This document shows positions 1 through 12,978 of a DNA stretch of 18,337 nucleotides, in pieces. Origin of the DNA: Thermoplasmata archaeon (GTDB taxonomy: Archaea > Thermoplasmatota > Thermoplasmata > GCA-020350865); the NCBI GenBank assembly GCA_020351895.1, contig CP070672.1, positions 3,219,119 to 3,237,455 of the forward strand, given 5' to 3'. Below the pieces are notes generated by a model, which saw nothing but the letters and a program-made list of their open reading frames with translations, had not been told where the DNA came from and ran no database searches. Position numbers and translations under genes: made by a program. The stretch's first letter is position 1, and every line of letters begins with the position of its first letter.

Positions 1-1214
1 AAAGAAAGGGATATTAAATTCCTGATCATCTTCCGCTCATCCGAAAGATAATAAGGCATAAAAATTACTGTATTTCTATCCCCCACCATTCCTGTAATGG
101 CAGCTCTGAGTTTCATCTTAGATATCAATTTATATGTAGCTTTCACAATGTTGTTCATTTCGGTAACGGGAACATAAATCTCTCCCAATACAGCCGAGGG
201 ACCGGCTCGTTTGGTGCGAAGTTCAAAAAATCGTTCATTCCATTCATGTTGGGCAACTTCTTTTTCTTGTTTCTCTCCTTTGCAGTTTTTAACAGTCCTG
301 TCCAGGATTTCTTCTTCAAGATCCAGAACCTCGGAATCGCCCTCTAATGCTAGGTTCAATATTCCACTAACATTAGGCATGTTTTCTTTTACTCCTATCT
401 CCCTTAGAAAATCAAAATGGTTTTTATCTAAAAACGAAATATGCAGGGGTACAACCTGTGATTTTGTTACCGCTTCTACCGCTTCTGAGAGCGTTTTGAA
501 ATCTGAAAAACCATAGGATATGGGTCGCAGCTCCTCAGGGGCGGGATATATTCTTAAAATTGCCTTGGTAATAATTCCCAGTGTACCCTCTGCACCAAAG
601 AATAATCTATTGATATTCTGATCACTATTGTTCATTTCAGTTTTATCAGCTGTATTTACAATTCTACCGTTTGGTTGAACAACCTCTAAACCCCTTATAT
701 GATCGATTGCTGATCCGTACTTATAAGAACCTACTCCCACGCCACCGGTATTGATCCATCCTCCCACTGTAGCCGCATAGGCACTACTTGGGTAAGAACC
801 AATGAGAAATCCCCTTCTTATTAAGGTTTCATAGAGCATTTTCCAGGTGATTCCGGATTCCACAGTTACCGTTAAATTCTCTTTGTCAATGTTTAATATT
901 TTATTCATTTTTGTTAAATCAAAAACTATGCCCCCCGAAATAGGCATTGCTCCCCCCAAACCCCAACTTGCCCCTCCTCTTGGAATTATGGGTATCCCCT
1001 CTGAAATCGCGATTTTAACTATTTCTGAAATCTCATTTGCGTCCTTTGGTATCACAACAAGATCCGGCATCATTTTAAATCCAAGTTCCATCATTTTTGG
1101 AAGGGAGGCGAGATCGTGGCTGTACATCCTCCTTTCAAAACTGTTGATTCTAACCATGTCCTTACCTGAGATTCCGATAATCTGTTCATATATTTCGTCT
1201 GGGATACTGCTCAT
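1..1214 (-). CDS. FAD-binding oxidase (GlcD-like, VAO/PCMH fold), C-terminus cut by window edge
   Basis: The reverse strand reads open from ATG at 1214 to the left edge (404 codons, no stop), so the C-terminus lies outside. The product starts MSSIPDEIYEQI. It carries the FAD-binding PCMH pattern: PRGGASWGLGG near residues 78-88 (pyrophosphate loop), GGWINTGGVGVGSYKYG near 150-166, and FFGAEGTLGII near 205-215. This is the layout of GlcD, D-lactate dehydrogenase and alkyldihydroxyacetone-phosphate synthase enzymes, which oxidise a 2-hydroxy acid or similar substrate using FAD. The visible part covers the FAD domain and much of the FAD-oxidase C-terminal domain. A GGAGAT ribosome site at 1221-1226 fits the ATG at 1214. 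The substrate cannot be told from sequence. Some archaeal relatives carry a C-terminal iron-sulfur domain, which would fall outside the window. Confidence 0.9.
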   Translation of the reverse strand, partial: MSSIPDEIYEQIIGISGKDMVRINSFERRMYSHDLASLPKMMELGFKMMPDLVVIPKDANEISEIVKIAISEGIPIIPRGGASWGLGGAMPISGGIVFDLTKMNKILNIDKENLTVTVESGITWKMLYETLIRRGFLIGSYPSSAYAATVGGWINTGGVGVGSYKYGSAIDHIRGLEVVQPNGRIVNTADKTEMNNSDQNINRLFFGAEGTLGIITKAILRIYPAPEELRPISYGFSDFKTLSEAVEAVTKSQVVPLHISFLDKNHFDFLREIGVKENMPNVSGILNLALEGDSEVLDLEEEILDRTVKNCKGEKQEKEVAQHEWNERFFELRTKRAGPSAVLGEIYVPVTEMNNIVKATYKLISKMKLRAAITGMVGDRNTVIFMPYYLSDERKMIRNLISLS

Positions 1215-1561
1215 TTCGCAATCTCCATGCTGTAATTCATTAATTGAATGTCGTGAACCTCACTTTTTTGGACATCTTCTTATTATTTTATATCAGACAT
1301 ATGGCAATTATTTAGTTGATTTTCGTTTGAATTTATACTGATGCCGCAGTGGAAATGACGATAAACGAATATATAAATTCATTTGATTTATACATATCGG
1401 CATTTTCACATCGCTTTTCGTCACATCTGCATTAATTTATGGGTTTTTATATTTAACGGTTCAATAATCAATTTGTAATTTATATAGCCTAATCTGTTTT
1501 TACTGTTACAAAAAATTCAATATATCAAAATTATATACCCAAAAGGTTTGAGGGATTTAGG
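1215..1561. promoter_or_regulatory. Divergent promoter region between the FAD oxidase and the OsmC-like gene
   Basis: No gene is seen in this AT-rich 347-base gap. For the leftward gene the nearest TATA-like run is TGATATAAAATA (minus strand, about 1284-1295). For the rightward gene there are TATA-like runs at about 1476-1487 (TAATTTATATAG) and 1529-1539 (AATTATATACC). An imperfect inverted repeat pairs 1356-1368 (tgacgataaacga) with 1411-1423 (tcgcttttcgtca), 11 of 13 positions, 42 bases apart. It could be an operator. Which TATA box is used cannot be settled by eye. Confidence 0.4.
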
Positions 1562-2014
1562 ATGAAGGAACATGAGAAAAAAGAGGAAATAAAGATTGTT
1601 AAAGCCCACGTTAAGGTCTTTTGGGAGGGTGGAGTTAAGACCAACAGCATGATGCGGGGTTTTGAGGTGGTAGCTGATGCTCCCAAGTGGAAATATGGAA
1701 CCAATACGGCTCCAGCACCTGGGGAGCTCTTTTTAACCAGCCTGGGAGCCTGTTTCACATCTACATTTACTAAATGCGCACAGGAACTGGCCATCATCTT
1801 GGATGATGTTACCACAGATGTCAGGGCCAAAATCGATCACGAGATGAGCGGAAGAGAGCGGTTTGTGAAGATCACAATGGAACTATCCGCTTTTGCTGAC
1901 GAGAAATACAAAAAGGAGCTAAAAAAGTGCTTTGAGATGGCAAAGATGAGGTGCCCTTTGACAAATGCAGTCAAGACTGAGCTGGAGATTTCCTATAAAT
2001 TTCGAAAAGTATAA
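1562..2014 (+). CDS. OsmC/Ohr-family peroxiredoxin-like protein
   Basis: The 150-residue product has the usual length and pattern of OsmC family proteins, cytoplasmic thiol peroxidases that reduce organic hydroperoxides. The two family cysteines are Cys64 in SLGACFTSTF and Cys131 in MRCPLTNAV. Extra cysteines lie at 72 and 123. The N-terminus holds a charged stretch (KEHEKKEEIK) before the first strand. The start is supported by GAGGGA at 1550-1555. The gene is divergent from the FAD oxidase and is followed by a hairpin with a T tract, so it is probably transcribed alone. The family assignment is firm. Whether this member is a true peroxidase or another OsmC-fold protein is not shown. Confidence 0.9.
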   Translation: MKEHEKKEEIKIVKAHVKVFWEGGVKTNSMMRGFEVVADAPKWKYGTNTAPAPGELFLTSLGACFTSTFTKCAQELAIILDDVTTDVRAKIDHEMSGRERFVKITMELSAFADEKYKKELKKCFEMAKMRCPLTNAVKTELEISYKFRKV

Positions 2015-2016
2015 CC

Positions 2017-2046
2017 TGATTCGAGGTATTGAATCAAATTTTTTTT
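2017..2046 (+). terminator. Hairpin plus T tract after the OsmC-like gene
   Basis: Directly after the stop codon, TGATTC (2017-2022) and GAATCA (2031-2036) form a perfect 6-bp stem with an 8-base loop, followed by eight T residues (2039-2046). A T tract alone can end transcription in archaea. The tract runs into the stop codon of the convergent UbiA gene. Confidence 0.6.
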
Positions 2047-2980
2047 AAACAGCGACTATAAGCAGGACAGCACACATCACGATATTGTAGTTTGTAGCAA
2101 CCATTGTTGCCCTCAGGCTTTTTATAATGTTCGTCGGTTCTTTTATCAACGGTACTGCCGAAATCCAAAAGATAACAGAGATAACCAACATTGTTATGAT
2201 AAAAATCAATGAATCAGAGAAAAAGGTGGCAAGGTAGATTGCGAAAATCAACGTAACCACCGAGAAGACAACGCTGAGTAAAACTACACTTCTTGGTTTC
2301 GGTTTTATTAAAAACGTTTTTGCTACATTAATCGCCCAAGGCAATGTAAGAATATGAAAGGCCTGCCAGAATGCAAAAACGAGATATAACACCCAGGGGA
2401 TGGGTGAGGTAAATAATGTATCTGGAGAAAAGGCAACCCAGCCTCCTACAGCTATTAATGGAGGTATTGGTGCAAGAACCAGATATCCAATCCTGTCTCT
2501 AAGATATGGATATAATGTTCCTAATCCTAAGGCTACCAACTCAACAACCACAAGCTGCCAGTTGAAAAATATATATGTTAGAATTATTCCCAGTGCTGCA
2601 AGTGATATGGCATAATAGGCTCCGCTTCTTCGGGAAATAATCTCAGAGGGAAGGGGTCTATCTGGCCATTTCTTTTTGTCGATTTCCTTATCTATTGTAT
2701 CGTCTATTGTGTGTTCTGCTGATGTCAATAAATAAACGGCAATTGACCCTATAACAATTGATTCCAAAGAGGGGATTCTTTCCAGGGCGATAATGGCTGC
2801 TGCAAAAAACATCAGGGGTCCCATAATGGCGATTGCGGGTCTTTGGAGGCATATAAGACTTAGAATCTTATTTTTTATTGATTTTCCCTTGGGAATCCCC
2901 TGCCCGTAAAGTAGTCCCATGATTTTCATTGAGGTTGTGAAATCCTCTTCTATTTTCATGCTCTCACGGATTATATTCAT
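2045..2980 (-). CDS. UbiA-family membrane prenyltransferase
   Basis: This 311-residue protein is dominated by hydrophobic helices, about eight or nine. It carries the first UbiA aspartate-rich motif: D93, D94, D97 and D101, followed by WPDRPLPSE at 105-113, matching DxxxD followed by PxRPL. UbiA enzymes bind prenyl diphosphate through Mg2+ at this motif and transfer the isoprenoid to an acceptor in the membrane, as in archaeal ether lipid, menaquinone, chlorophyll or heme A synthesis. The second motif is not canonical: a loop with YPYLRDRIG stands after helix four, and no clear DxxxD is seen in the second half. The acceptor is therefore uncertain. About 40 residues precede the first helix. 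AGGA sits just before the ATG at 2980, and a TATA-like run lies near 3049-3058. Confidence 0.85.
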   Translation of the reverse strand: MNIIRESMKIEEDFTTSMKIMGLLYGQGIPKGKSIKNKILSLICLQRPAIAIMGPLMFFAAAIIALERIPSLESIVIGSIAVYLLTSAEHTIDDTIDKEIDKKKWPDRPLPSEIISRRSGAYYAISLAALGIILTYIFFNWQLVVVELVALGLGTLYPYLRDRIGYLVLAPIPPLIAVGGWVAFSPDTLFTSPIPWVLYLVFAFWQAFHILTLPWAINVAKTFLIKPKPRSVVLLSVVFSVVTLIFAIYLATFFSDSLIFIITMLVISVIFWISAVPLIKEPTNIIKSLRATMVATNYNIVMCAVLLIVAV

Positions 2981-3048
2981 TCGTCCTGTTTATCGAGTTT
3001 AGGATGATATGTCTTTTTTGTGCAATATTGATGGCTAATTGCCAGATA

Positions 3049-3058
3049 ATTTATACCT
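3049..3058 (-). promoter_or_regulatory. Putative TATA box for the UbiA-family gene
   Basis: The minus strand reads GGTATAAATT here. Transcription would begin near 3025-3030, leaving a leader of about 45 bases before the ATG at 2980. The rest of the gap 2981-3247 is AT-rich and shows nothing else I can support. Confidence 0.4.
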
Positions 3059-3247
3059 TTTTTATTCGAAAGTTACATAATGAATCCACTATATATCGAT
3101 TTTTTGCATAAAAGTGATATATTCCAAGGTATGATGATAATGCTTTTGATTTAGCTTTCTGTAATCATGAATATCATTGATCAATATAGTATGAATTTCT
3201 TTAAGGGAAGACCTCATGGAATATTCTAATTCTAGGGGGCTCCTTTC

Positions 3248-5620
3248 TTATTTAAGCCCTATGATTATGTCAGAATCCATGAAACCGTTTCCATAATATG
3301 TAGAATTCGTTAGCAGCAACTCATTGATCTCTTTAAGGTCATCTATTTTATTCATTTTCAATTTGTTCTGCGAGTAGGTATAAAGAACATCATCGATGTA
3401 AAATGATCTTTTAATATAGTTGTCATTATACCTATACCAACGACTGTATCCAGACTGAAATTCGCTACCATTGGAGTGACTTATTCTTCCCTTCAACGAA
3501 AATCCGTTTTCTATGGAGATATGTAGGACATAAGCGCCATTCCATACGTATTCTCCTTGGGTATTTGGTGGTGCACCGTTTGGATATCGGCTTTCGTTGA
3601 TTTCGTAAAGTTGTATTGGTAAGACAAGCATATTCTTTTCTTGGCTTACTAACAAAGCATGAGGGTCCCCTAATGCCAGTGAATTGGTTCCTCTGTCTCC
3701 GATAATGAATTTCGATATCTCCTTTGGATTCTTCACATCGCTGACATCGAAGAGAGAAAGTTTTACACCTTGATACCAGGCAAATGTCCCCATATCCACA
3801 GTGTCCTTACCCAATCCAATGATGTGGTTCTCGTCATATGGATGGAGGTAATCAGAGTATCCTGGAATCTTCAATTCACCCAATATCTTTGGTTCATATG
3901 GATCTGTGAGGTCAATGACAAAGAATGGATCCACTTTCTTGAATGTGACAAGATAGGCTCTGTTTCCCATGAATCGTGCGGAGTAGATCTTCTCTCCTGG
4001 TGCAATGTCAGATATGTTGCCCACAATGTTTAGGTCCATATCAAGGATATGAACATGATTTCTTGCACCGCCTTGTCCATTTCTCCAGACATTACCAGTG
4101 GTGGTGGCAATCCTGAAATAAAGTTTATGCTCACCCATGGAAAACCGGTTCAAGACATGTCCTGGGACCTCTCCCATTGCCTCGTATTGTATCATTCCAT
4201 TCCCAATAGATATACGATGGAGGATGGTCATTTCGATGCGCTCCGTATAATATCCTTGGTTCTTTGAGTAATAATTTGTTGAAGATGATTTCGTGTATGT
4301 AATATAGATGTTATTCATTGAGAAAAATATGTTTTGAGATCTCTCCATTATTATGGCCCTAGAGACAGGTTTTACCGAACAATCGAGAACATTGATGGAC
4401 ATAAAGAACGTTATTGGCAGCCTGGAGGAGTAAGGGGAATATTCGAAGTTATTAAAATAATAAATGTCTTTCGGATGAACCGGAAGATCAGTTTCCTGGG
4501 TAAGGCGGTTCACATACTGTTGTGATATGAGATATAGATAGTCTCCAATCAATCGGGATTGTACGAAATTACCCTTGAAGTGGTAGGTATCCATCAATTC
4601 TGGATTTTCCTTGTCTTTTATGCCGAATATATAGATCATTGGTCCCCTATCATTCTCGTAGCTAAGTAGAACTAGCCTATCCCCATATATATAAATCTCT
4701 TTTATGGTCCCATTCATCCTTATCTGCGAGAGAATTTTCGCATTCTCTGCAGGATGAGCCTCTATTATGAGCACCTTGTTCTTATGGTTTTCATCCTTTG
4801 AAATGATATACGCATACTTACCATCATTTTTAATAATGTCTCCCTCGTCAACACCTGTGACCTGGACATTTGTGATGGAATAACCTGAGCCTGAGTTTCC
4901 CACTGCAGAGCCAAAAGACTCTACAGCTGAACCTTTGTTGGTGATTGTTATAAAATTCATAGTTCCTGAATCATTCTCCCAGGAGTTACATTTTGGATAG
5001 ATTCTTGGTTGGAATGTATTATTTTCCACATAGCTTCGGAACTTTTCAAAAGAAGGAAAATTCCTAATTCCACATGATTCATCTTCTGGATTTTCTCTAT
5101 CCACAAAAGGAGTGACATCATCTTCTTGATCCTTGGAGTTGATCTCAATTATTTCCTTTATTTTTATCTCCTCTATTATTAGAGGTTCAGGATGGAAAGG
5201 CAGGGTCAAATTGAAAGTCTTTCTATGTGTCACTAACCCGGCCTCCACTTCTTCCTGGATTTCACTTGTTTCTTCTGCTGCTTCCTCTTTTGGAAGTTCA
5301 GTCTCTGGTAATCCCTCAACCGGAAATTTCTCTTCTGGATTTTCATCCTCCTTTAGCTCTTTATAATGATTTCTGATATATTCTGCGGTATTATCATCCA
5401 ATCCACTTGGCAGTTTAACATAGATTATTTCATTGTTGCCTCTTACTAAGATATAATCTGAATCTGATGTATAATCTGTTTTGAATTCAGATTTACCAGT
5501 TACAGGTTCAAGTTTTTCAACCATAAGGTCTGAAAGCCCAGCATTACCTATTGTCACATTCGCCAAAAGTAACGTGCATAAGGACACGATTCCAAACACC
5601 ATTATCTTCCTGTTCAGCAT
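3248..5620 (-). CDS. Secreted COG4880-type beta-propeller protein (Beta_propel domain)
   Basis: I place the start at the ATG at 5618-5620, preceded by GGTGA, giving 790 residues. A TTG start at 5680 would extend the frame, but it lies upstream of the TATA box inside the promoter. Residues 1-26 form a signal peptide (MLNRKIMVFGIVSLCTLLLA). A negatively charged, proline-rich spacer follows at about 90-190. The family signature GVDEGDIIKNDG stands at 256-267, and repeated beta-strand blades run to the C-terminus. This matches secreted proteins with a C-terminal propeller distantly related to WD40 repeats. Such proteins are exported; no enzymatic role is established and binding is the likely function. 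Cys183 and Cys211 could form a disulfide. The gene is monocistronic, under the shared element at 5650-5705. Confidence 0.85.
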   Translation of the reverse strand: MLNRKIMVFGIVSLCTLLLANVTIGNAGLSDLMVEKLEPVTGKSEFKTDYTSDSDYILVRGNNEIIYVKLPSGLDDNTAEYIRNHYKELKEDENPEEKFPVEGLPETELPKEEAAEETSEIQEEVEAGLVTHRKTFNLTLPFHPEPLIIEEIKIKEIIEINSKDQEDDVTPFVDRENPEDESCGIRNFPSFEKFRSYVENNTFQPRIYPKCNSWENDSGTMNFITITNKGSAVESFGSAVGNSGSGYSITNVQVTGVDEGDIIKNDGKYAYIISKDENHKNKVLIIEAHPAENAKILSQIRMNGTIKEIYIYGDRLVLLSYENDRGPMIYIFGIKDKENPELMDTYHFKGNFVQSRLIGDYLYLISQQYVNRLTQETDLPVHPKDIYYFNNFEYSPYSSRLPITFFMSINVLDCSVKPVSRAIIMERSQNIFFSMNNIYITYTKSSSTNYYSKNQGYYTERIEMTILHRISIGNGMIQYEAMGEVPGHVLNRFSMGEHKLYFRIATTTGNVWRNGQGGARNHVHILDMDLNIVGNISDIAPGEKIYSARFMGNRAYLVTFKKVDPFFVIDLTDPYEPKILGELKIPGYSDYLHPYDENHIIGLGKDTVDMGTFAWYQGVKLSLFDVSDVKNPKEISKFIIGDRGTNSLALGDPHALLVSQEKNMLVLPIQLYEINESRYPNGAPPNTQGEYVWNGAYVLHISIENGFSLKGRISHSNGSEFQSGYSRWYRYNDNYIKRSFYIDDVLYTYSQNKLKMNKIDDLKEINELLLTNSTYYGNGFMDSDIIIGLK

Positions 5621-5649
5621 GATGTTCACCAATTTATCAATCCCAATCG

Positions 5650-5705
5650 ATATAAAAAGTATTTTTGGCCTAATCGTCAAAATGTTGGCACGTTCGTCAA
5701 AATGT
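5650..5705 (-). promoter_or_regulatory. Promoter with double operator box for the beta-propeller gene
   Basis: On the plus strand the order is tataaaaagta (5651-5661, the TATA box read backwards), ttttt-ggc (5662-5669), then tcgtcaaaatgt at 5674-5685 and an identical tcgtcaaaatgt at 5694-5705, exactly 20 bp apart. The boxes thus lie just upstream of the TATA/BRE region for the leftward gene. The same layout recurs before three other genes in this window. The TATA position predicts a start of transcription near 5629, about nine bases before the ATG. Confidence 0.75.
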
Positions 5706-5710
5706 ATGAC

Positions 5711-5773
5711 TAAGAAAAAAAGAAAATGACGTAATTAATACTTCTCATTTTGGGGCCTTAAGTAAACCCCAAA
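5711..5773 (-). terminator. Hairpin and T-rich tract after the PKD-protein transcription unit
   Basis: Reading leftward from the stop at 5802, arms TTTGGGG (5767-5773) and CCCCAAA (5749-5755) can pair with an 11-base loop. About 20 bases further the minus strand reads ATTTTCTTTTTTTCTTA (5711-5727). A T-rich tract of this kind is the usual archaeal termination signal. It lies just before the next promoter element at 5650-5705. Confidence 0.5.
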
Positions 5774-5801
5774 TCACTCATTTATCTCTTACTCAATAGT
5801 T

Positions 5802-6323
5802 TTAATATTCTGATGGACATATCATGATACATTTAGCTAATCGTTTTTCATATTCCATGTACATTTGATGATCATAATAGCCATCTATAAAATTATCAAA
5901 CCATGAGCTTTGGGTATTATCCTTCTCATCCTTAGAAATATAATTACTAAAATACACCCCCCATTCATGGAGGATATTTCTCCCCTTTTGGTGTTTTGGA
6001 TATTGCGGTGGAATTAAGTGGATATCACCGTCTGCTGGCTGAATCAAGAGGTGAAACCTTATTATCTCTTCATATGATTTTTCGGTTTCAACCTGAATGA
6101 TTTCCTCTATTACGTCTTCAGGAATATACATAATAGCAAAACGGAAAGGCTTCTGACCCGGAAATAGTCTGGCACCCTTACCCAACCACTCATCGATGAA
6201 ATCTTCTATTTCGTTTTCAAATAATCCCACTTTTGCAAGTTCAGCTCTGAAGAAGTCCTTTAATTCTTTAAGACTTAGTGATTTTCCATCTAAAAATAGA
6301 TTACCTTCTTCGTCCCTATCCAA
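5802..6323 (-). CDS. C-terminal part of the PKD-domain protein, cut off by an in-frame TAG
   Basis: This frame is the direct in-frame continuation of the gene at 6333-8705: after its TAG come Gly, Trp, Ile and then TTG at 6321-6323. As an independent gene it would need that TTG start without a convincing ribosome site, giving 173 residues with no signal peptide. Its first 75 residues (DRDEEGN..., LKDFFRAELAKVGL, EIEDFIDEWLGKG, PFRFAIMYIPED) look like the second half of a domain whose first half (NIYLYRE..., YNFLYYEE) ends the upstream frame. I therefore read it as the tail of one gene interrupted by a nonsense codon. Recoding, a recent mutation and a sequence error are all possible. The final 95 residues, to the end CPSEY, resemble nothing I recognise. 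Confidence 0.6.
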   Translation of the reverse strand: MDRDEEGNLFLDGKSLSLKELKDFFRAELAKVGLFENEIEDFIDEWLGKGARLFPGQKPFRFAIMYIPEDVIEEIIQVETEKSYEEIIRFHLLIQPADGDIHLIPPQYPKHQKGRNILHEWGVYFSNYISKDEKDNTQSSWFDNFIDGYYDHQMYMEYEKRLAKCIMICPSEY

Positions 6324-6332
6324 AATCCAGCC

Positions 6333-8705
6333 CTATTCCGAAGTCTTCGGTTCATTTAATAGCTCTTCATAATAAAGGAAGTTATAATACTCTCCATCAT
6401 AGAGCAATTTTCCGTTCTCTATAAAAACGTCCTCCCAAACAATATCGGTGCCAAGTTCAACCAAGGGTACAGCCTTCGTTACTCTTCCATCAACGATGAT
6501 TCTTATGGTATCGAAACCTGGAGTTTCCCGGTATAAATAGATATTAGGACTAGATGGTCGTGGTGCCACCATTTTAATAATTGACACATTGTAGTTATCA
6601 TTCCAGACTGTCAATTTTACTTGATAATCTTTTTGGGAGTCCTCAAATTTATGGCTCGCCTCGATCCCTATAGAGGTTTCACCATCCCCAAAATCCCAAG
6701 AATAGAAAAAATCATCATGAGTAGTTCCCTCTGGAGTGATAGTTGAATTAGCATTGAAAGTAACTGGGTTGCTCCATGAATTGAGTCTATTATTCCATGA
6801 TGAATAATATTTTAAATAGGTGACATTTTTTTGTTCATTTATGTCACAATAATTCCCCAAGAACTCTTCTTGATTCCACCATGGAAAGTCATTAGGTGCT
6901 GTTGTTATGAAATCAGGTATTAATGGAAGAATATTATCTTTATTCATCACGACGACTTTAATCCAATAAGTAACAGCGTGATAGGATAAATCGGGCTTTT
7001 GATCGTTATTTTCATATTTTGAGACAGAGTCCTCAATCCATAGAATAAAACCCAAGCGTTCATATATATATGTATGTCGTATGCCCACTAAAAAATATCC
7101 GGGCTCTAAAAAAGCTCTGGTAATGGATGTGGAGGTTGTATTTTCTTCGTAAATTCCATCTCCATCAAAATCCCATTCCAACCATGAGCCGTCAGTGAGG
7201 CTAATTGCCTCAGAAATATCAAATGTTAATGGTTCATTTAGATTGCAAAATAGGTATCTTTCCATATCTCTCTCGTAATAATTCCCTAAAATTACAATCT
7301 TGGGATTTTCACTTCCCTTTAAAACAACAAATGTTTTTGAAACACTATGACTCCACCCCCTCATATATAAAGTAACGGTGTATGTCCCTCTATGAGAATA
7401 ATTATAGCAAACATTTATTCCCTCAAGGATATTGCCATCCCCGAAATCCCAGTAAAATATTGTTCCTTCATTTATATCTATGGTTTTTGAAGCGTCAAAC
7501 TCTACTTGGTAATCCTCTAAATATGAGATCTTTTCACTTTCAATCTCTTTCACCCTGACATAAACAATAGATGGATCAATAACTTCGTTTCTTTTTCCAT
7601 CAATATGACCTTGATGGGGGCCTATTGAGGAGGTTCGAGGATTTCTTACATTTAACTGATATATTTTAGGTTCAATTTGTATTGTAAAAGGTTGATCAGA
7701 GAATATAATCCCTGAATTTTCTACATCTTGCCCAGCTCTTAATTCCCTCTCTTCCACAACATTACAAAGCTCAAAATCCAGTATTGGAGGATATCCAGTT
7801 TCTATAGATCCTACACTCACTTCAATTGTATATTCAACAATATTTTGATATTCTACAAATTTGGGAGTAATATTTTCTATCTCAACATTTTTCTTCGTAT
7901 TTAATCGGCCTACTCCCGAAATTGAAGGAGTATCACTTCTGGTATTCCTTATATTTGTATCCATTGAGACATCACCAGTAAACTGTGTAGAATTTGATAC
8001 AAAATCATTTGAAACAAAATAATTAACATCATCTATGTATATTGGATAATATGAATAATTATAGTTATAAGTAATTCTTATATGCATATCATAAAGTCCA
8101 ATTGTGGTGTATTTATAGGATAAAATAGGTGAAAAGCTAACCTCTTCATATATCCCATCACCATCGAAATCCCCTTCACATTTTTTAAGATTATACGAGG
8201 AAAACAAAGATGAAGTATCGAAACTCAACAACCCGTTTACATCGCAAAAAAGATGTCCATCCATAATACCTTCTGTCATCTGATTTGTGAGAACAACATA
8301 CTTGCCTGATTCCTCAAGAGAGAGGTTTTCATTTTGAGGAATCACCTTGGACATATCATCCATCCCATCTCCGTTTTCCCCGATATTACCATTCTCATTT
8401 GATTCTTCTTTGATTTTTTGTATGATTCGATCTTCAATTTCTATTTCATCAATATCCTTGGGCATATCTACTGTGATCCTATTGCCATCCTCATCCTCAA
8501 TCATAAAGAACATCTTTAGTTCCTCAATTGTAAGAATAGGATGATATAAAGATTCCATTGATCCCTGATATTTTTCAAAGCTAGAGGCGATCACCATGCT
8601 TTTCCCGTAACCAAAATTTGTTCCAGTTCCTGCTGGAAAAACCAGGGAAATAAATAGTACAAATACAATGATGAGTATGGCCACTTTAATAGTTCTTCCG
8701 AACAT
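6333..8705 (-). CDS. Secreted multi-PKD-domain protein, ending at TAG inside its C-terminal domain
   Basis: The 790-residue product begins with a signal peptide (about 1-25; ILIIVFVLFISLVFPAG). Two classic PKD domains carry WDFGDG at 419-424 and 669-674. Two further PKD-like segments carry DFDGDGIYEE at 179-188 and 512-521, an aspartate pattern that also suggests calcium binding. PKD domains are immunoglobulin-like modules of exported proteins, used for adhesion or as spacers in S-layer proteins and hydrolases; no catalytic domain is visible. From 719 on (NIYLYRE, VWEDVFIENGKLLYDG, YNFLYYEE) a further domain begins and is broken by TAG at 6333-6335. In-frame readthrough would give 967 residues ending at 5802. 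AGGGA stands before the ATG. The promoter shares the operator element of its neighbours. Confidence 0.85.
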   Translation of the reverse strand: MFGRTIKVAILIIVFVLFISLVFPAGTGTNFGYGKSMVIASSFEKYQGSMESLYHPILTIEELKMFFMIEDEDGNRITVDMPKDIDEIEIEDRIIQKIKEESNENGNIGENGDGMDDMSKVIPQNENLSLEESGKYVVLTNQMTEGIMDGHLFCDVNGLLSFDTSSLFSSYNLKKCEGDFDGDGIYEEVSFSPILSYKYTTIGLYDMHIRITYNYNYSYYPIYIDDVNYFVSNDFVSNSTQFTGDVSMDTNIRNTRSDTPSISGVGRLNTKKNVEIENITPKFVEYQNIVEYTIEVSVGSIETGYPPILDFELCNVVEERELRAGQDVENSGIIFSDQPFTIQIEPKIYQLNVRNPRTSSIGPHQGHIDGKRNEVIDPSIVYVRVKEIESEKISYLEDYQVEFDASKTIDINEGTIFYWDFGDGNILEGINVCYNYSHRGTYTVTLYMRGWSHSVSKTFVVLKGSENPKIVILGNYYERDMERYLFCNLNEPLTFDISEAISLTDGSWLEWDFDGDGIYEENTTSTSITRAFLEPGYFLVGIRHTYIYERLGFILWIEDSVSKYENNDQKPDLSYHAVTYWIKVVVMNKDNILPLIPDFITTAPNDFPWWNQEEFLGNYCDINEQKNVTYLKYYSSWNNRLNSWSNPVTFNANSTITPEGTTHDDFFYSWDFGDGETSIGIEASHKFEDSQKDYQVKLTVWNDNYNVSIIKMVAPRPSSPNIYLYRETPGFDTIRIIVDGRVTKAVPLVELGTDIVWEDVFIENGKLLYDGEYYNFLYYEELLNEPKTSE

Positions 8706-8733
8706 ATTTATCCCTAATTATCTATTTCCGATG

Positions 8734-8789
8734 ATATAAAAAGTATTTTTGGCGTGTTCATCGAAATGTTAGCAGGATTATAGAAATGT
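8734..8789 (-). promoter_or_regulatory. Promoter with double operator box for the PKD-domain gene
   Basis: The plus-strand order is the TATA box read backwards (8735-8745), ttttt-ggc (8746-8753), tcatcgaaatgt (8758-8769) and ttatagaaatgt (8778-8789). The two boxes are 20 bp apart, as before the beta-propeller gene. The 20-base core atataaaaagtatttttggc (8734-8753) is identical to 5650-5669. Confidence 0.75.
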
Positions 8790-8810
8790 CATTTATTAAG
8801 GCATTATAAA

Positions 8811-10289
8811 TCAGGCAATAGAACCCTCGATTATCTCAATTACCTTTTTCAATTGTACATCTTTATTGAGTGAGTACACGATTTCTTTCCCTTTCCTATG
8901 CTTATTGATGATTTCAGCATCCTTCAAACGCTTAACATGCCAATTCACTGTGGAAGGATATATTTTTAGGGCGTTTGAGACACCCTTTTGGTTGGATTCT
9001 GGATTCGAGATAAGGAATTTCACAATCTTCCTTGCTGTATTGTTCTTAAGGGCTGACATAATGTGCTTGTAGCCATTTCCATTCGTATATTTGCTGTACC
9101 TGTTCTTATTGATATAATAGCGCTTAGACTTGCCATTCTTATGAGAGACAATCTTATCCATGCCCTCCAAGACAGAAAGATGATACCTTGCGCTGCCGGA
9201 ACTAAGGTCCAATTTCTTAGTAATTTTCGCCAAATGTTCCCCAGGATTCTCTGCAATGTATATATAAATATCTTTCCTCACGCCGTCCAATATCCCGTTC
9301 CTATCTAACCTAGCAAAAAGCCAATATGACAATACAAGCGATCCTATAATAAGAAGAGATAAAGTGTACATTAGGGGTGGAGGTATGAAACCACTTCCAA
9401 CCTTTCCCTCACCTTCTCTCTCAAATTTTGCATTTTCGTAGAACTGCTCAGCCAGGGCAGCAATAGCTAAGTCATTAATATTATTATATTTCTGAGATCG
9501 TAGCCAAGTCATTGCATTATCCGCGATTTCTTCAATAGGATGTGTAGTTAATGCCATAGTAGCCCAAGCGGTGTCCTCTATTCCTCCAAAGCTACCGTCG
9601 GGTCTTTGTTTTAGCGCCAAAGCTGATATTTCTTTCCAAACATCAATACCTCCGCTGTCCAAGGCCAATATGGATTTTGAGTCGTCCTCAACCGAACCCC
9701 AAGTAAATTCATCCTTATCCTCATGTTCTTGGAGCCAAATAAGACCCTCTTCGACTGCTTCGTCGTTTTCTACTCCTCTTTTATGCAAAGCATATGTTGC
9801 TATGCTAGTGTCGCCTACATCCAAGTTCCAGCTCCCATCTGGCCGTTGGGTATCGGTTATATAAAAGTAAACATCATTTTCAAAATCATCAGTTTCCATA
9901 TTAGGTGCGTCCCAGTATTTGGTTCCCACGTGAGTGCTCCAAAGGATCATCGAGTGAGTTTCTACAGAGAGGTTCTCATGGTAGTTATTTAAGGTCCAAT
10001 TTGTACCTCTATAAGCAGCCCCTCCATATGTTATATATTCAACGGAATCGCTCGGATACCTTTTTAAGGCTTCATAATTAGCAACGATAAGCTCACCTGA
10101 AACATTAATATCGTTATCCCAACTGCCATCTTCGGATTGAAACCCATTAATTTCATCAAGTAATTTAGTTCGATAGTCAATCTGGATCTCATATTCCTCG
10201 GCACTAGCTCCGCTTGCGATTATAAAAATTACACAAATCAGTAAGAGAACTGCCATGCCCAATAATTTTAGACGCCACTCCCCGCTCAT
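8811..10289 (-). CDS. Membrane-anchored double winged-helix regulator with terpenoid-cyclase-like ectodomain (copy A)
   Basis: The 492-residue product has a signal/anchor segment at about 8-30. An extracytoplasmic alpha/alpha-toroid region of prenyltransferase/squalene-cyclase type follows at about 38-290, with QW-like motifs QSEDGSW (51-57), QRPDGSW (148-154) and QRPDGSFGG (228-236) and repeat helices ending in -IATYAL, -SILAL and -ATMAL. One membrane helix lies at about 306-326. Two cytoplasmic winged-helix domains follow: 333-395 (SARYHLSVLEGMDKIVSHKNGKSKRYY) and 413-480 (STVNWHVKRLKDAEII). The pair of HTH domains resembles COG3398 regulators. Where squalene-hopene cyclase has DVDD, this protein has DVGD (157-160), so the middle catalytic Asp is lost and a sensor role is likely. 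The TATA position suggests a leaderless message. Confidence 0.85.
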   Translation of the reverse strand: MSGEWRLKLLGMAVLLLICVIFIIASGASAEEYEIQIDYRTKLLDEINGFQSEDGSWDNDINVSGELIVANYEALKRYPSDSVEYITYGGAAYRGTNWTLNNYHENLSVETHSMILWSTHVGTKYWDAPNMETDDFENDVYFYITDTQRPDGSWNLDVGDTSIATYALHKRGVENDEAVEEGLIWLQEHEDKDEFTWGSVEDDSKSILALDSGGIDVWKEISALALKQRPDGSFGGIEDTAWATMALTTHPIEEIADNAMTWLRSQKYNNINDLAIAALAEQFYENAKFEREGEGKVGSGFIPPPLMYTLSLLIIGSLVLSYWLFARLDRNGILDGVRKDIYIYIAENPGEHLAKITKKLDLSSGSARYHLSVLEGMDKIVSHKNGKSKRYYINKNRYSKYTNGNGYKHIMSALKNNTARKIVKFLISNPESNQKGVSNALKIYPSTVNWHVKRLKDAEIINKHRKGKEIVYSLNKDVQLKKVIEIIEGSIA

Positions 10290-10311
10290 CGGATATTATA
10301 ACCTTTATATA

Positions 10312-10366
10312 TACTTATATAATTTTTGGCTTAATCATAGAAATATTAACAAATATATCGAAATAT
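10312..10366 (-). promoter_or_regulatory. Promoter with double operator box for regulator A
   Basis: The plus-strand order is a TATA-like run (about 10312-10322), ttttt-ggc (10323-10330), tcatagaaatat (10335-10346) and atatcgaaatat (10355-10366), again 20 bp apart. The box stands 7 bases from the first G of ggc, as in the other three promoters. The predicted transcription start falls at about 10290, next to the ATG at 10289. Confidence 0.7.
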
Positions 10367-10392
10367 AATTAATACTCTTGAACCTAAAGAAA

Positions 10393-11907
10393 TTATGCAA
10401 TCGAACCTTCGATTATACCAATTACTTTCGAAAGCTGCACTTCCTGATTGAGGGAGTACACTATCTCCTTTCCTTTTTTCTGCTTGGTGATGATCTCAGC
10501 ATCCCGCAACCTCTTTGCGTGCCAATTCACAGTGGATGGATGGATTCTAAGAGCCTTTGAAACACGTTTCTGGTTCGACTCTGGATTGGATAATAAGAAT
10601 TTGACTATCCTTCTTGCAGTGCCGTTTTTAAGGGCCGACATTATTGGCTTGTATCCGTTTCCGTTCGTATATTTGCTATAACCATTTTTATTAACATAAT
10701 ACCGCTTGTACTTGCCGTTCTTATGGGAGACTATCTTGTCCATTCCCTCCAATACTGAAAGATGATACCTTGTGCTGCTTGAACTCAAGTCGAATTTCTT
10801 GGTAATATTGGCCAAATGTTCCCCTGGATGCTCTGTAATGTATGCATAGATATCTTTTCTTACTCCATCCAATATTTCATTCCTATCTAGCCTAGCAAAT
10901 AACCAATAACCCAAAGCAAGTGAACCAATGATAAAGAATGAAAGGGCGTACATCCAAGGTGGAGGAATGAATCCATTTCCCTCTTCCTCTCTTTCTTCAC
11001 TCAATTTCGCATTCTCATAATACTGCTCAGCCAGGGCGGCCAAGGCTAAATCTTTGTTATTGTCATAATTTTGAGATCGAAGCCAGGAAACTGCTCTCTC
11101 CATACTCATCATCGTATCTTTATTTGGGCTGGTTGACAATGCAATTACCGCCCAACTGGTATCCTCGATTCCCCCAAAGCTGCCGTCCGGTCTTTGCCTT
11201 AACATCAATGCCGCGATTTCTTCCCATACATCGATACCGGCACTGTTTAAGGCCATAATTGCCTTCGAGTCATCTTCAATCGAGCCCCAGGAGTGCTCTT
11301 GTTTATTCTCCTGTTCTAGGAGCCACTCAATACCTTTAATCACTGTCTCTCTGTTCTCTGGCTTTGGTGGTGATAAACCGTATATTGCCATTGCAGTGTC
11401 ACCTACATCGTAATTCCAGCTTCCATGAGGTTCCTGTGTGGCCGCGAGAGTTATAATAGATTCGGTTTGTAAAACTGAGTATGCATCTGGTGAGTTCCCA
11501 GTGTTTCTTACACTAATCGTATACGAGCAATAATCCACAGAAGTGCATTCTTCAACATTTTCTGCTATCCATTTGGAACCACCGATAATGTTCTTCTCGT
11601 AATCTTCTGATTTACTATCAGCGTCATCATCATAAATATATTTATATTCACCCTCATTTCTTGCATATCCTTTTGTCGTATCCAAAGCAACATCATTACC
11701 TAAGTTAGCAATAGCTGTGGTGTTTACATCCTCATCCCAACTACCGTTATCGCTCTGGTTTTTATTTAGCGAATATAGCAAAACTGTAGAATTATCCCCT
11801 CCTTCAACCTCGCCATCCGCACAGGCTGTGCTGGCTATTATGAAAATCGAGCAAATCAATATGAGGGCAAACAGACCCACTCCCGTAATCCGCCACTCCC
11901 CGCTCAT
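10393..11907 (-). CDS. Membrane-anchored double winged-helix regulator with terpenoid-cyclase-like ectodomain (copy B)
   Basis: This is a tandem paralogue of the gene at 8811-10289. I choose the ATG at 11905-11907 (504 residues) because its MSGEWR matches the start of copy A and because an upstream start at 11958 lies inside the operator. Order: signal/anchor (about 8-30), toroid ectodomain with QSDNGSW (51-57), QEPHGSW (158-164) and QRPDGSFGG, a membrane helix near 318-338, then two winged-helix domains. The cytoplasmic half is nearly the same as in copy A, while residues 60-155 of the ectodomain are largely unalike and include ECTSVDYC, a possible disulfide pair. The cyclase motif again reads DVGD (167-170). 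The pair therefore probably reads the same operators in response to different ligands. This is inference. Confidence 0.85.
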   Translation of the reverse strand: MSGEWRITGVGLFALILICSIFIIASTACADGEVEGGDNSTVLLYSLNKNQSDNGSWDEDVNTTAIANLGNDVALDTTKGYARNEGEYKYIYDDDADSKSEDYEKNIIGGSKWIAENVEECTSVDYCSYTISVRNTGNSPDAYSVLQTESIITLAATQEPHGSWNYDVGDTAMAIYGLSPPKPENRETVIKGIEWLLEQENKQEHSWGSIEDDSKAIMALNSAGIDVWEEIAALMLRQRPDGSFGGIEDTSWAVIALSTSPNKDTMMSMERAVSWLRSQNYDNNKDLALAALAEQYYENAKLSEEREEEGNGFIPPPWMYALSFFIIGSLALGYWLFARLDRNEILDGVRKDIYAYITEHPGEHLANITKKFDLSSSSTRYHLSVLEGMDKIVSHKNGKYKRYYVNKNGYSKYTNGNGYKPIMSALKNGTARRIVKFLLSNPESNQKRVSKALRIHPSTVNWHAKRLRDAEIITKQKKGKEIVYSLNQEVQLSKVIGIIEGSIA

Positions 11908-11928
11908 CAAAGAATATACCTTGATGTA

Positions 11929-11963
11929 TACATATATACTTTTTGGCACAATCATCAAAATAT
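11929..11963 (-). promoter_or_regulatory. Promoter with single operator box for regulator B
   Basis: The plus-strand order is a TATA-like run (about 11929-11939), ttttt-ggc (11940-11947) and tcatcaaaatat (11952-11963) at the standard spacing. The second box expected at 11972-11983 matches only about 3 of 12 positions, so I count it as absent. The predicted transcription start is at the ATG (11907), giving a leaderless message. Confidence 0.65.
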
Positions 11964-12165: not shown

Positions 12166-12978
12166 ATGAAAATCCTCCCAGATGTGCGATTGATTGTGAA
12201 CAATGTTCCAATTTCCACAAGGCAGATTGAGGTTCTCACCACTATAGCTTCCATCAAATCCCAAAACAAGGCCGCAAAAGCATTGGGAATCTCTGTTCCT
12301 GTTCTTCATAGACATATAAAAGATTTGGAGAACAAGTTGGGTATGAATTTGATTTCCACAACACCGCAAGGAACGATTTTAACGGAAAACGGAAGAAAGA
12401 TTATAGAGGAATATAACAGGTTCCTAAAAAGAACGGAACCTACACAAAAACCTGTTGTAGCCTGCTCTCCTTTGTTTAGCAATTTGGTTCTGGAAGCTGT
12501 CTCAGCAGCTGAAAGAGAAGGTTACGAAATAAACATTTTGATCGGAGATGACGAGCTAAATAATAACTATCTATCCATGGGTCTTGTGGATGTTGTAATC
12601 TTCGATGACCCGATTTTCGTATACAGGATGAAGGAGACAGATCAAAGGCACGAGATAAAAGAGGTTGTAAAAGATACATTGATCCATGTAAATCGAGGAA
12701 ATAAATACCTCCGATATAGGTACGGAGCCCAAAGAATTGGTTTTAGCAATTTGGATTTGGAAGGTGTTAGTTACGAGGTTGTAGGAGAGACAAGGGATTT
12801 CATGCGTCTTCTAAAATCGGAAAATAGCTTCTTCATAAACAGGAGTTTGGCGGTAAGAGAGGGATTGGACTTGGTAAGTGACACGCCTTTAAATCTGCTT
12901 ATTCACAGCATATTCGCCTTAAGGATGGGGGAAGGAGATGAACTCGATGTCCTATTACAGCAATTGGGGCCTGTATAA
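12166..12978 (+). CDS. LysR/ModE-like transcriptional regulator
   Basis: The 270-residue protein has an N-terminal winged helix at about 15-75 (TRQIEVLTTIASIKSQNKAA, then GISVPVLHRHIKDLENKLG and the wing STTPQGTILTENG), the pattern of LysR and ModE DNA-binding domains. Residues about 95-265 look like a periplasmic-binding-protein-type effector domain, with a first strand KPVVACSPLF and later VDVVIFDDPIF. Such archaeal regulators bind a small molecule or anion; the ligand here is unknown. A TATA-like run at 12126-12138 is about 34 bases before the ATG, and no ribosome site is visible, so the leader must be very short. It is a single-gene unit facing away from regulator B and convergent with the next gene. 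No operator box of the 20-bp type stands before it. Confidence 0.8.
   Translation: MKILPDVRLIVNNVPISTRQIEVLTTIASIKSQNKAAKALGISVPVLHRHIKDLENKLGMNLISTTPQGTILTENGRKIIEEYNRFLKRTEPTQKPVVACSPLFSNLVLEAVSAAEREGYEINILIGDDELNNNYLSMGLVDVVIFDDPIFVYRMKETDQRHEIKEVVKDTLIHVNRGNKYLRYRYGAQRIGFSNLDLEGVSYEVVGETRDFMRLLKSENSFFINRSLAVREGLDLVSDTPLNLLIHSIFALRMGEGDELDVLLQQLGPV

What the first reader, a model, noticed from the sequence alone, without database searches (positions are those of the whole stretch)
5650..11963. Four promoters share a composite operator with boxes exactly 20 bp apart
Before the beta-propeller gene, the PKD gene and both membrane regulators the plus strand reads TATA, TTTTTGGC, four bases, then a 12-base box. 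The boxes are tcgtcaaaatgt, tcatcgaaatgt, tcatagaaatat and tcatcaaaatat. In all four, the box starts 7 bases from the first G of GGC. In three, a second box follows with a 20-bp period (two helical turns, same DNA face); the fourth lacks it. The boxes stand directly upstream of the BRE/TATA, a position suited to activation by recruiting TBP/TFB. No such element is seen before the other genes. The genes are not operonic, so this is a local regulon and not a shared transcript.
Basis: seen in the sequence. Interest (0 to 1): 0.85.

Follow-up and report, generated by a model that had tools for sequence, protein, structure and literature searches.

The report
Tandem operator for archaeal surface genes
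A 20-base DNA control element, often in two abutting copies just upstream of the core promoter, marks a small set of mostly secreted or surface-protein genes in uncultured archaea, including the genes of the membrane-anchored regulators that probably bind it.

Summary
Four minus-strand promoters carry TTTTTGGC-N4-box just upstream of TATA; three carry a second box exactly 20 bp further out. TTGGC belongs to the repeating unit, which is 20 bp: TTGGC-N4-TCRTCAAAATG. The regulon is not local. Two related genomes (CP070739.1, CP070751.1) each hold 8 sites with at most 1 mismatch, in 7 promoters, mostly far from the regulator gene. In 9 of 11 promoter pairs compared the proximal unit is 76-100% identical while upstream flanks are 15-40%. 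A second unit scores high only at +20, in 9 of 24 promoters. Of 15 targets examined, 14 have a hydrophobic N-terminus. Variant units recur in a second order beside the same regulator and beta-propeller genes. Exceptions exist: G066 has the tandem but no close regulator; G058 the reverse. The likely binder is the linked membrane regulator: a terpene-cyclase-like outer domain lacking the middle acid of DxDD, one membrane helix, two winged helices. Position predicts activation. Binder and sign are untested. Dyad symmetry was tested and not supported. Closest parallel: ArnR/ArnR1 of Sulfolobus.

The parts
5662..5685 (+). s1 proximal unit with T-run, beta-propeller promoter (gene on minus strand)
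5686..5705 (+). s1 distal unit, 20 bp out, itself TTGGCACGTTCGTCAAAATGT from 5685
8746..8769 (+). s2 proximal unit, PKD gene promoter
8770..8789 (+). s2 distal unit, weaker (13 of 17 core positions)
10323..10346 (+). s3 proximal unit, regulator A promoter
10347..10366 (+). s3 distal unit, weaker (12 of 17 core positions)
11940..11963 (+). s4 single unit, regulator B promoter
   Evidence: 7 of 17 at +20
5650..5656 (-). TATA-like box of s1 (TTTATAT on the minus strand)
8734..8740 (-). TATA-like box of s2
3248..5620 (-). secreted beta-propeller protein, PF09826, ATG start chosen by comparison (longest ORF to 5680)
6333..8705 (-). PKD-domain protein
8811..10289 (-). regulator A: outer toroid, membrane helix, two winged helices
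10393..11907 (-). regulator B, paralog of A (61% identity), 504 aa from its ATG

Best explanation
The element is the operator of the linked membrane-anchored one-component regulators. Each 20-bp unit is read by the cytoplasmic double winged-helix part. The unit sits directly upstream of BRE/TATA. A second unit abuts it at beta-propeller and some other promoters, on the same DNA face, and probably gives cooperative binding. Bound regulator most likely recruits TBP/TFB and activates genes for mostly secreted or surface proteins, and regulates its own gene, usually through a single unit. Shown: unit, spacing, position, rarity, conservation, and linkage to regulator and target class. Inferred: the binder, cooperativity, activation, and an outside signal.
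For: Element before both regulators of the window and before the orthologs in G001 and G002, and variants (3 mismatches) before those of G051 and G095. 7 promoters in each of two genomes at 0-1 mismatch. Conserved units in diverged flanks. Second unit only at +20. 14 of 15 targets with hydrophobic N-terminus against 42 of 108 other ORFs. Best TATA-like octamer 9-16 bp from GCC in 17 of 21 promoters against 32% of shuffles. In G002 a PKD protein with the same double winged helix is also a target. Upstream sites go with activation in reviewed archaeal systems (passages).
Against: No binding or expression data. G066 has a weak tandem (4 and 5 mismatches) before its beta-propeller gene but its best regulator match is only 8.2e-23. 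G058 has the regulator but no good site (best E 1.16). Many paralogous double winged-helix proteins exist (11 matches in G001, 19 in G002), any of which could be the binder. One target lacks a hydrophobic start (G2_2160). The unit's 3' end overlaps BRE, which also fits repression. Dyad symmetry expected for a dimer site was not supported.
Confidence: 0.62

Rival explanations
1. The linked membrane regulator binds the unit but represses: occupancy overlaps BRE and blocks TFB/TBP until an outer signal releases it.
For: The unit's GCCAA end runs into the BRE region in the promoters displayed; promoter-occluding repression and autoregulation are described for archaeal regulators (passages).
Against: Every site examined is on the upstream side of TATA; in the TrmB-type cases reviewed, upstream sites go with activation and downstream sites with repression (passages).
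Confidence: 0.2
2. A different transcription factor binds the element, such as one of the many paralogous double winged-helix proteins or an unlinked regulator; the linkage to regulators A and B reflects their being targets.
For: 11 and 19 matches to the double winged-helix profile in G001 and G002; G066 has a tandem without a close ortholog.
Against: Close regulator orthologs and the element occur together in G001, G002, G051, G081, G088 and G095; G003, G010, G013, G016 and G024, which lack a close ortholog, have no profile match better than E 1. The LysR-type neighbour is in only 2 of 14 genomes.
Confidence: 0.14
3. Recent duplication: the four promoters are similar because genes and promoters were copied locally, with no regulatory role.
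For: Regulators A and B are paralogs (61%); several beta-propeller promoters and the window PKD promoter share TACTTTTTATA next to the unit.
Against: Flanks are unrelated while units are conserved between species; unrelated target families carry it; several beta-propeller genes lack it.
Confidence: 0.03

Closest known systems
ArnR/ArnR1 and the two ArnR boxes of the Sulfolobus acidocaldarius flaB promoter (PMC6396743, passages)
   Same: Paralogous membrane-bound one-component regulators; paired boxes upstream of BRE/TATA (fragment -43 to -84); both boxes needed for binding in vitro; activation of surface-structure genes.
   Different: Box is TCGAC-N5-GTCGA there, 15 bp; here a 20-bp unit with no supported dyad. 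DNA-binding part is N-terminal in ArnR (passage), C-terminal and double here. Outer domain and targets differ.
Ptr2-, LysM- and TrmB/Tgr-type archaeal activators (PMC2995911, PMC4158304, passages)
   Different: These are not described in the passages as membrane-anchored and have other folds and motifs.
Transmembrane transcription regulators, TTR (PMC10269533, passages)
   Same: One-component protein with a DNA-binding domain and at least one membrane segment; widespread in archaea.
   Different: The passages seen describe no operator of this kind and no terpene-cyclase-like outer domain; supplementary files were not seen.
Class II terpene cyclases (squalene-hopene cyclase, drimenyl diphosphate synthase)
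   Different: Middle acid of DxDD missing in 18 of 18 rows; fused to a membrane helix and winged helices.

Membership tests
Transmembrane transcription regulators (TTR) | DNA-binding domain plus predicted membrane segment in one chain | tested here: met
   PF13412 and PF24266; hydrophobic peaks near residues 7 and 310; helix 305-331 in the model. Topology itself not tested experimentally.
ArnR-type regulators | Box TCGAC-N5-GTCGA | tested here: not met
   Consensus of 20 sites is TTTTTGGCACGATCGTCAAAATGT
ArnR-type regulators | N-terminal DNA-binding region | tested here: not met
   Winged helices at 337-393 and 408-474 of 492; ArnR feature from a passage
ArnR-type regulators | Two boxes, both needed for binding | not testable with these tools
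   Two units in 9 of 24 promoters; binding not testable
Class II terpene cyclase | Alpha/alpha toroid fold | tested here: met
Class II terpene cyclase | DxDD catalytic motif (role recalled) | tested here: not met
   Middle position is G, S or N in 18 of 18 rows, 17 distinct proteins; alignment to squalene-hopene cyclase, whose single segments are weak

The most novel reading that the evidence does not exclude
An extracytoplasmic receptor made from a terpene-cyclase fold without its catalytic acid senses an isoprenoid or glycan outside the cell and reads a tandem 20-bp operator straight from the membrane, two winged helices per chain meeting conserved blocks (GGC and TCA) 10 bp apart, so controlling a dedicated surface proteome: a lineage-specific archaeal outside-in switch.
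Probability: 0.3. Interest if true: 0.8.

Novelty: new variant of a known kind. Interest (0 to 1): 0.6.

Why it matters
Few archaeal membrane-bound regulators have a defined operator (judged from the papers seen and general knowledge). Here sequence comparison gives the operator, its spacing rule, a probable regulator and 7 strong target promoters per genome in uncultured Thermoplasmata, so binding, cooperativity and the sign of regulation become directly testable. The outer domain ties a terpene-cyclase fold without its catalytic acid to transcription, and a UbiA prenyltransferase gene lies beside the locus in the window and in G002.

Tried and rejected
Dyad symmetry: I first read the unit as a palindrome; permuting columns did not support it (p 0.16 and 0.58), so only the direct-repeat reading is kept.

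LysR-type neighbour (12166-12978) as binder: disfavoured. 2 of 14 genomes have it; G051, G081, G088 and G095 have the element or variants beside the regulator or beta-propeller gene without it.

General promoter feature: rejected by the genome counts.

Weak sites. Of 8 two-mismatch sites opened (L071, L073-L078 and, at L064, the second unit of a tandem), L071, L073 and L076 precede genes with hydrophobic starts, L074, L075 and L077 lie inside ORFs, and L078 shows no clear target. Of 11 weak profile hits opened, 6 lie inside a gene-direction ORF of over 300 aa (L114, L117-L121), L123 lies inside an opposite ORF, and L115, L116, L122 and L124 precede genes with hydrophobic starts. L125 and L126 were fetched but not examined. 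The regulon below the strong set is therefore uncertain.

Profile R1 was trained on sites of the genomes it then searched, so those scores are by construction; the unbiased test is.

Viral contigs: no relative of the regulator confirmed. Papers: no hit for CP070739, COG4880, a five-term search and a six-term search; HVO_0163 gave one paper, listing only. No claim of absence beyond these searches. Lassak et al. 2013 on ArnR was seen only as cited in other papers.

Full report
What is in the window. Four minus-strand genes, a beta-propeller protein (PF09826), a PKD protein and two paralogous membrane regulators, each have a promoter whose plus strand reads a TATA-like sequence, TTTTTGGC, four bases, then a box: tcgtcaaaatgt, tcatcgaaatgt, tcatagaaatat or tcatcaaaatat. 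The box is 7 bases from the first G of GGC in 4 of 4. In 3 of 4 a second box follows at exactly 20 bp; two of these second boxes are weak (13 and 12 of 17 core positions). TTGGCNNNNTCRTCAAAATRT with up to 3 mismatches matches 5 places in the window, all here; 200 shuffles gave a mean of 0.34 and none reached 5.

What the unit is. TTGGC recurs in the distal copy at 5685 and in distal copies in relatives, so the repeating unit is 20 bp, TTGGC-N4-TCRTCAAAATG. Over 20 sites the invariant positions are T4, G6, G7, C8, T16 and A19; the blocks GGC and TCA are 10 bp apart. I scored a second unit at each offset from 1 to 24 in 24 promoters: scores of 12 or more of 17 occur only at offset 20, in 9 of 24. 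The unit looks like an imperfect inverted repeat, but permuted columns do as well too often (p 0.16 and 0.58), so symmetry is not claimed.

Relatives. No whole genome is held for the window; a database copy of its regulator lies on a contig of 4,229,406 bases. The scan of genome contigs confirmed two loci with close relatives (60%): CP070739.1, Methanomassiliicoccales archaeon bin396 (G001), and CP070751.1, Thermoplasmata archaeon bin33 (G002). A pattern made from the window sites alone gave 8 and 9 matches there at up to 2 mismatches, against 2 and 1 for the reversed pattern. With the sharper consensus, written after that, and at most 1 mismatch there are 8 sites in each, in 7 promoters each. 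Of the 12 other genomes in that search, G088 has one exact site beside its regulator, G020 and G102 have one each inside ORFs, and 9 have none.

Targets. Each of the 14 promoters faces an ORF in the predicted direction, starting within about 170 bp. Start choice is uncertain in some: in two beta-propeller genes the longest ORF begins before or inside the site, and opposite-strand ORFs of 120 and 197 aa overlap two sites. Targets include the orthologous regulator, beta-propeller genes, a WD40-type pair, an SBBP-repeat protein, and in G002 a PKD protein that itself carries the double winged helix. Of 15 targets examined (the 14 plus one two-mismatch site), 14 have an N-terminal hydrophobic segment; the exception, G2_2160, has an AsnC-type ligand-binding domain. 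Among other ORFs of 150 aa or more in the same fetched loci it is 42 of 108. Some G001 targets are partly masked and only their open parts were read.

Footprint. In 11 promoter pairs the proximal unit is 62-100% identical (76% or more in 9; the other two involve the distant order), and flanks 20-90 bp upstream of it, counted in two blocks, are 13-40%. The distal unit is 55-95% identical in the 5 beta-propeller pairs and 20-55% in the other 6. So regulator promoters mostly carry one unit (regulator A, with a weak second, is the exception) and the linked beta-propeller promoters two.

A second order. The regulator at E 1e-40 or better is in 8 of 400 sampled genomes of the class: G001, G002, and 6 of 13 of another order. 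There, in loci opened because they hold the regulator or beta-propeller gene, 3-mismatch units lie before the regulator in G051 and G095, a tandem of two 3-mismatch units before the beta-propeller gene in G081, and an exact distal unit with a 4-mismatch proximal one in G088. Weaker tandems precede it in G051 (5 and 5 mismatches) and G066 (4 and 5). G066 has no close regulator ortholog (best 8.2e-23). G058 has the regulator but no good site. Beta-propeller genes in G016, G024 and G109, and further copies in G001 and G002, have no convincing element; G013 has a 3-mismatch match inside the coding frame; G102 and G095 are cut off upstream. So the element does not simply travel with that gene.

How it probably works. 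The unit ends where BRE/TATA begins: the best TATA-like octamer lies 9-16 bp from GCC in 17 of 21 promoters and in 32% of shuffles. Reviewed archaeal activators bind just upstream of the core promoter and contact TBP or TFB, while downstream sites go with repression (passages of PMC4158304 and PMC2995911). ArnR/ArnR1 are the closest working parallel: paralogous membrane-bound regulators and paired boxes within a -43 to -84 fragment, both needed for binding (passages of PMC6396743). The box and domain order differ, so this is not filed as an ArnR member. CsmR of Haloferax is another case of a motif next to the TATA box (passages of PMC13286277).

Verdict. The regulon is genome-wide rather than local. 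Binding by the linked regulator, and activation, are the most likely reading but are not shown.

Noticed in passing
window 12166-12978: LysR-type regulator gene facing away from regulator B; orthologs (60-63%) sit next to the regulator in G001 and G002, none found in 12 other genomes.
   Followed up: yes
window 2045-2980: UbiA prenyltransferase gene beyond the beta-propeller gene; a 64% identical gene lies at the same place in G002 (L069:8853-9800).
   Followed up: partly
L135 (G066), upstream of the beta-propeller gene: Two GCCAA-ending units exactly 20 bp apart in a genome without a close regulator ortholog.
   Followed up: partly
G001, G002: The double winged-helix profile rings 11 and 19 times at E 1e-8, many in long open frames: a large family of apparent receptors.
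   Followed up: no
window 5802-6323: ORF of 173 aa between the PKD and beta-propeller genes with no Pfam match.
   Followed up: no
L074 (G002), 19-8001: Open frame of 2661 aa beginning with many LTNG repeats.
   Followed up: no
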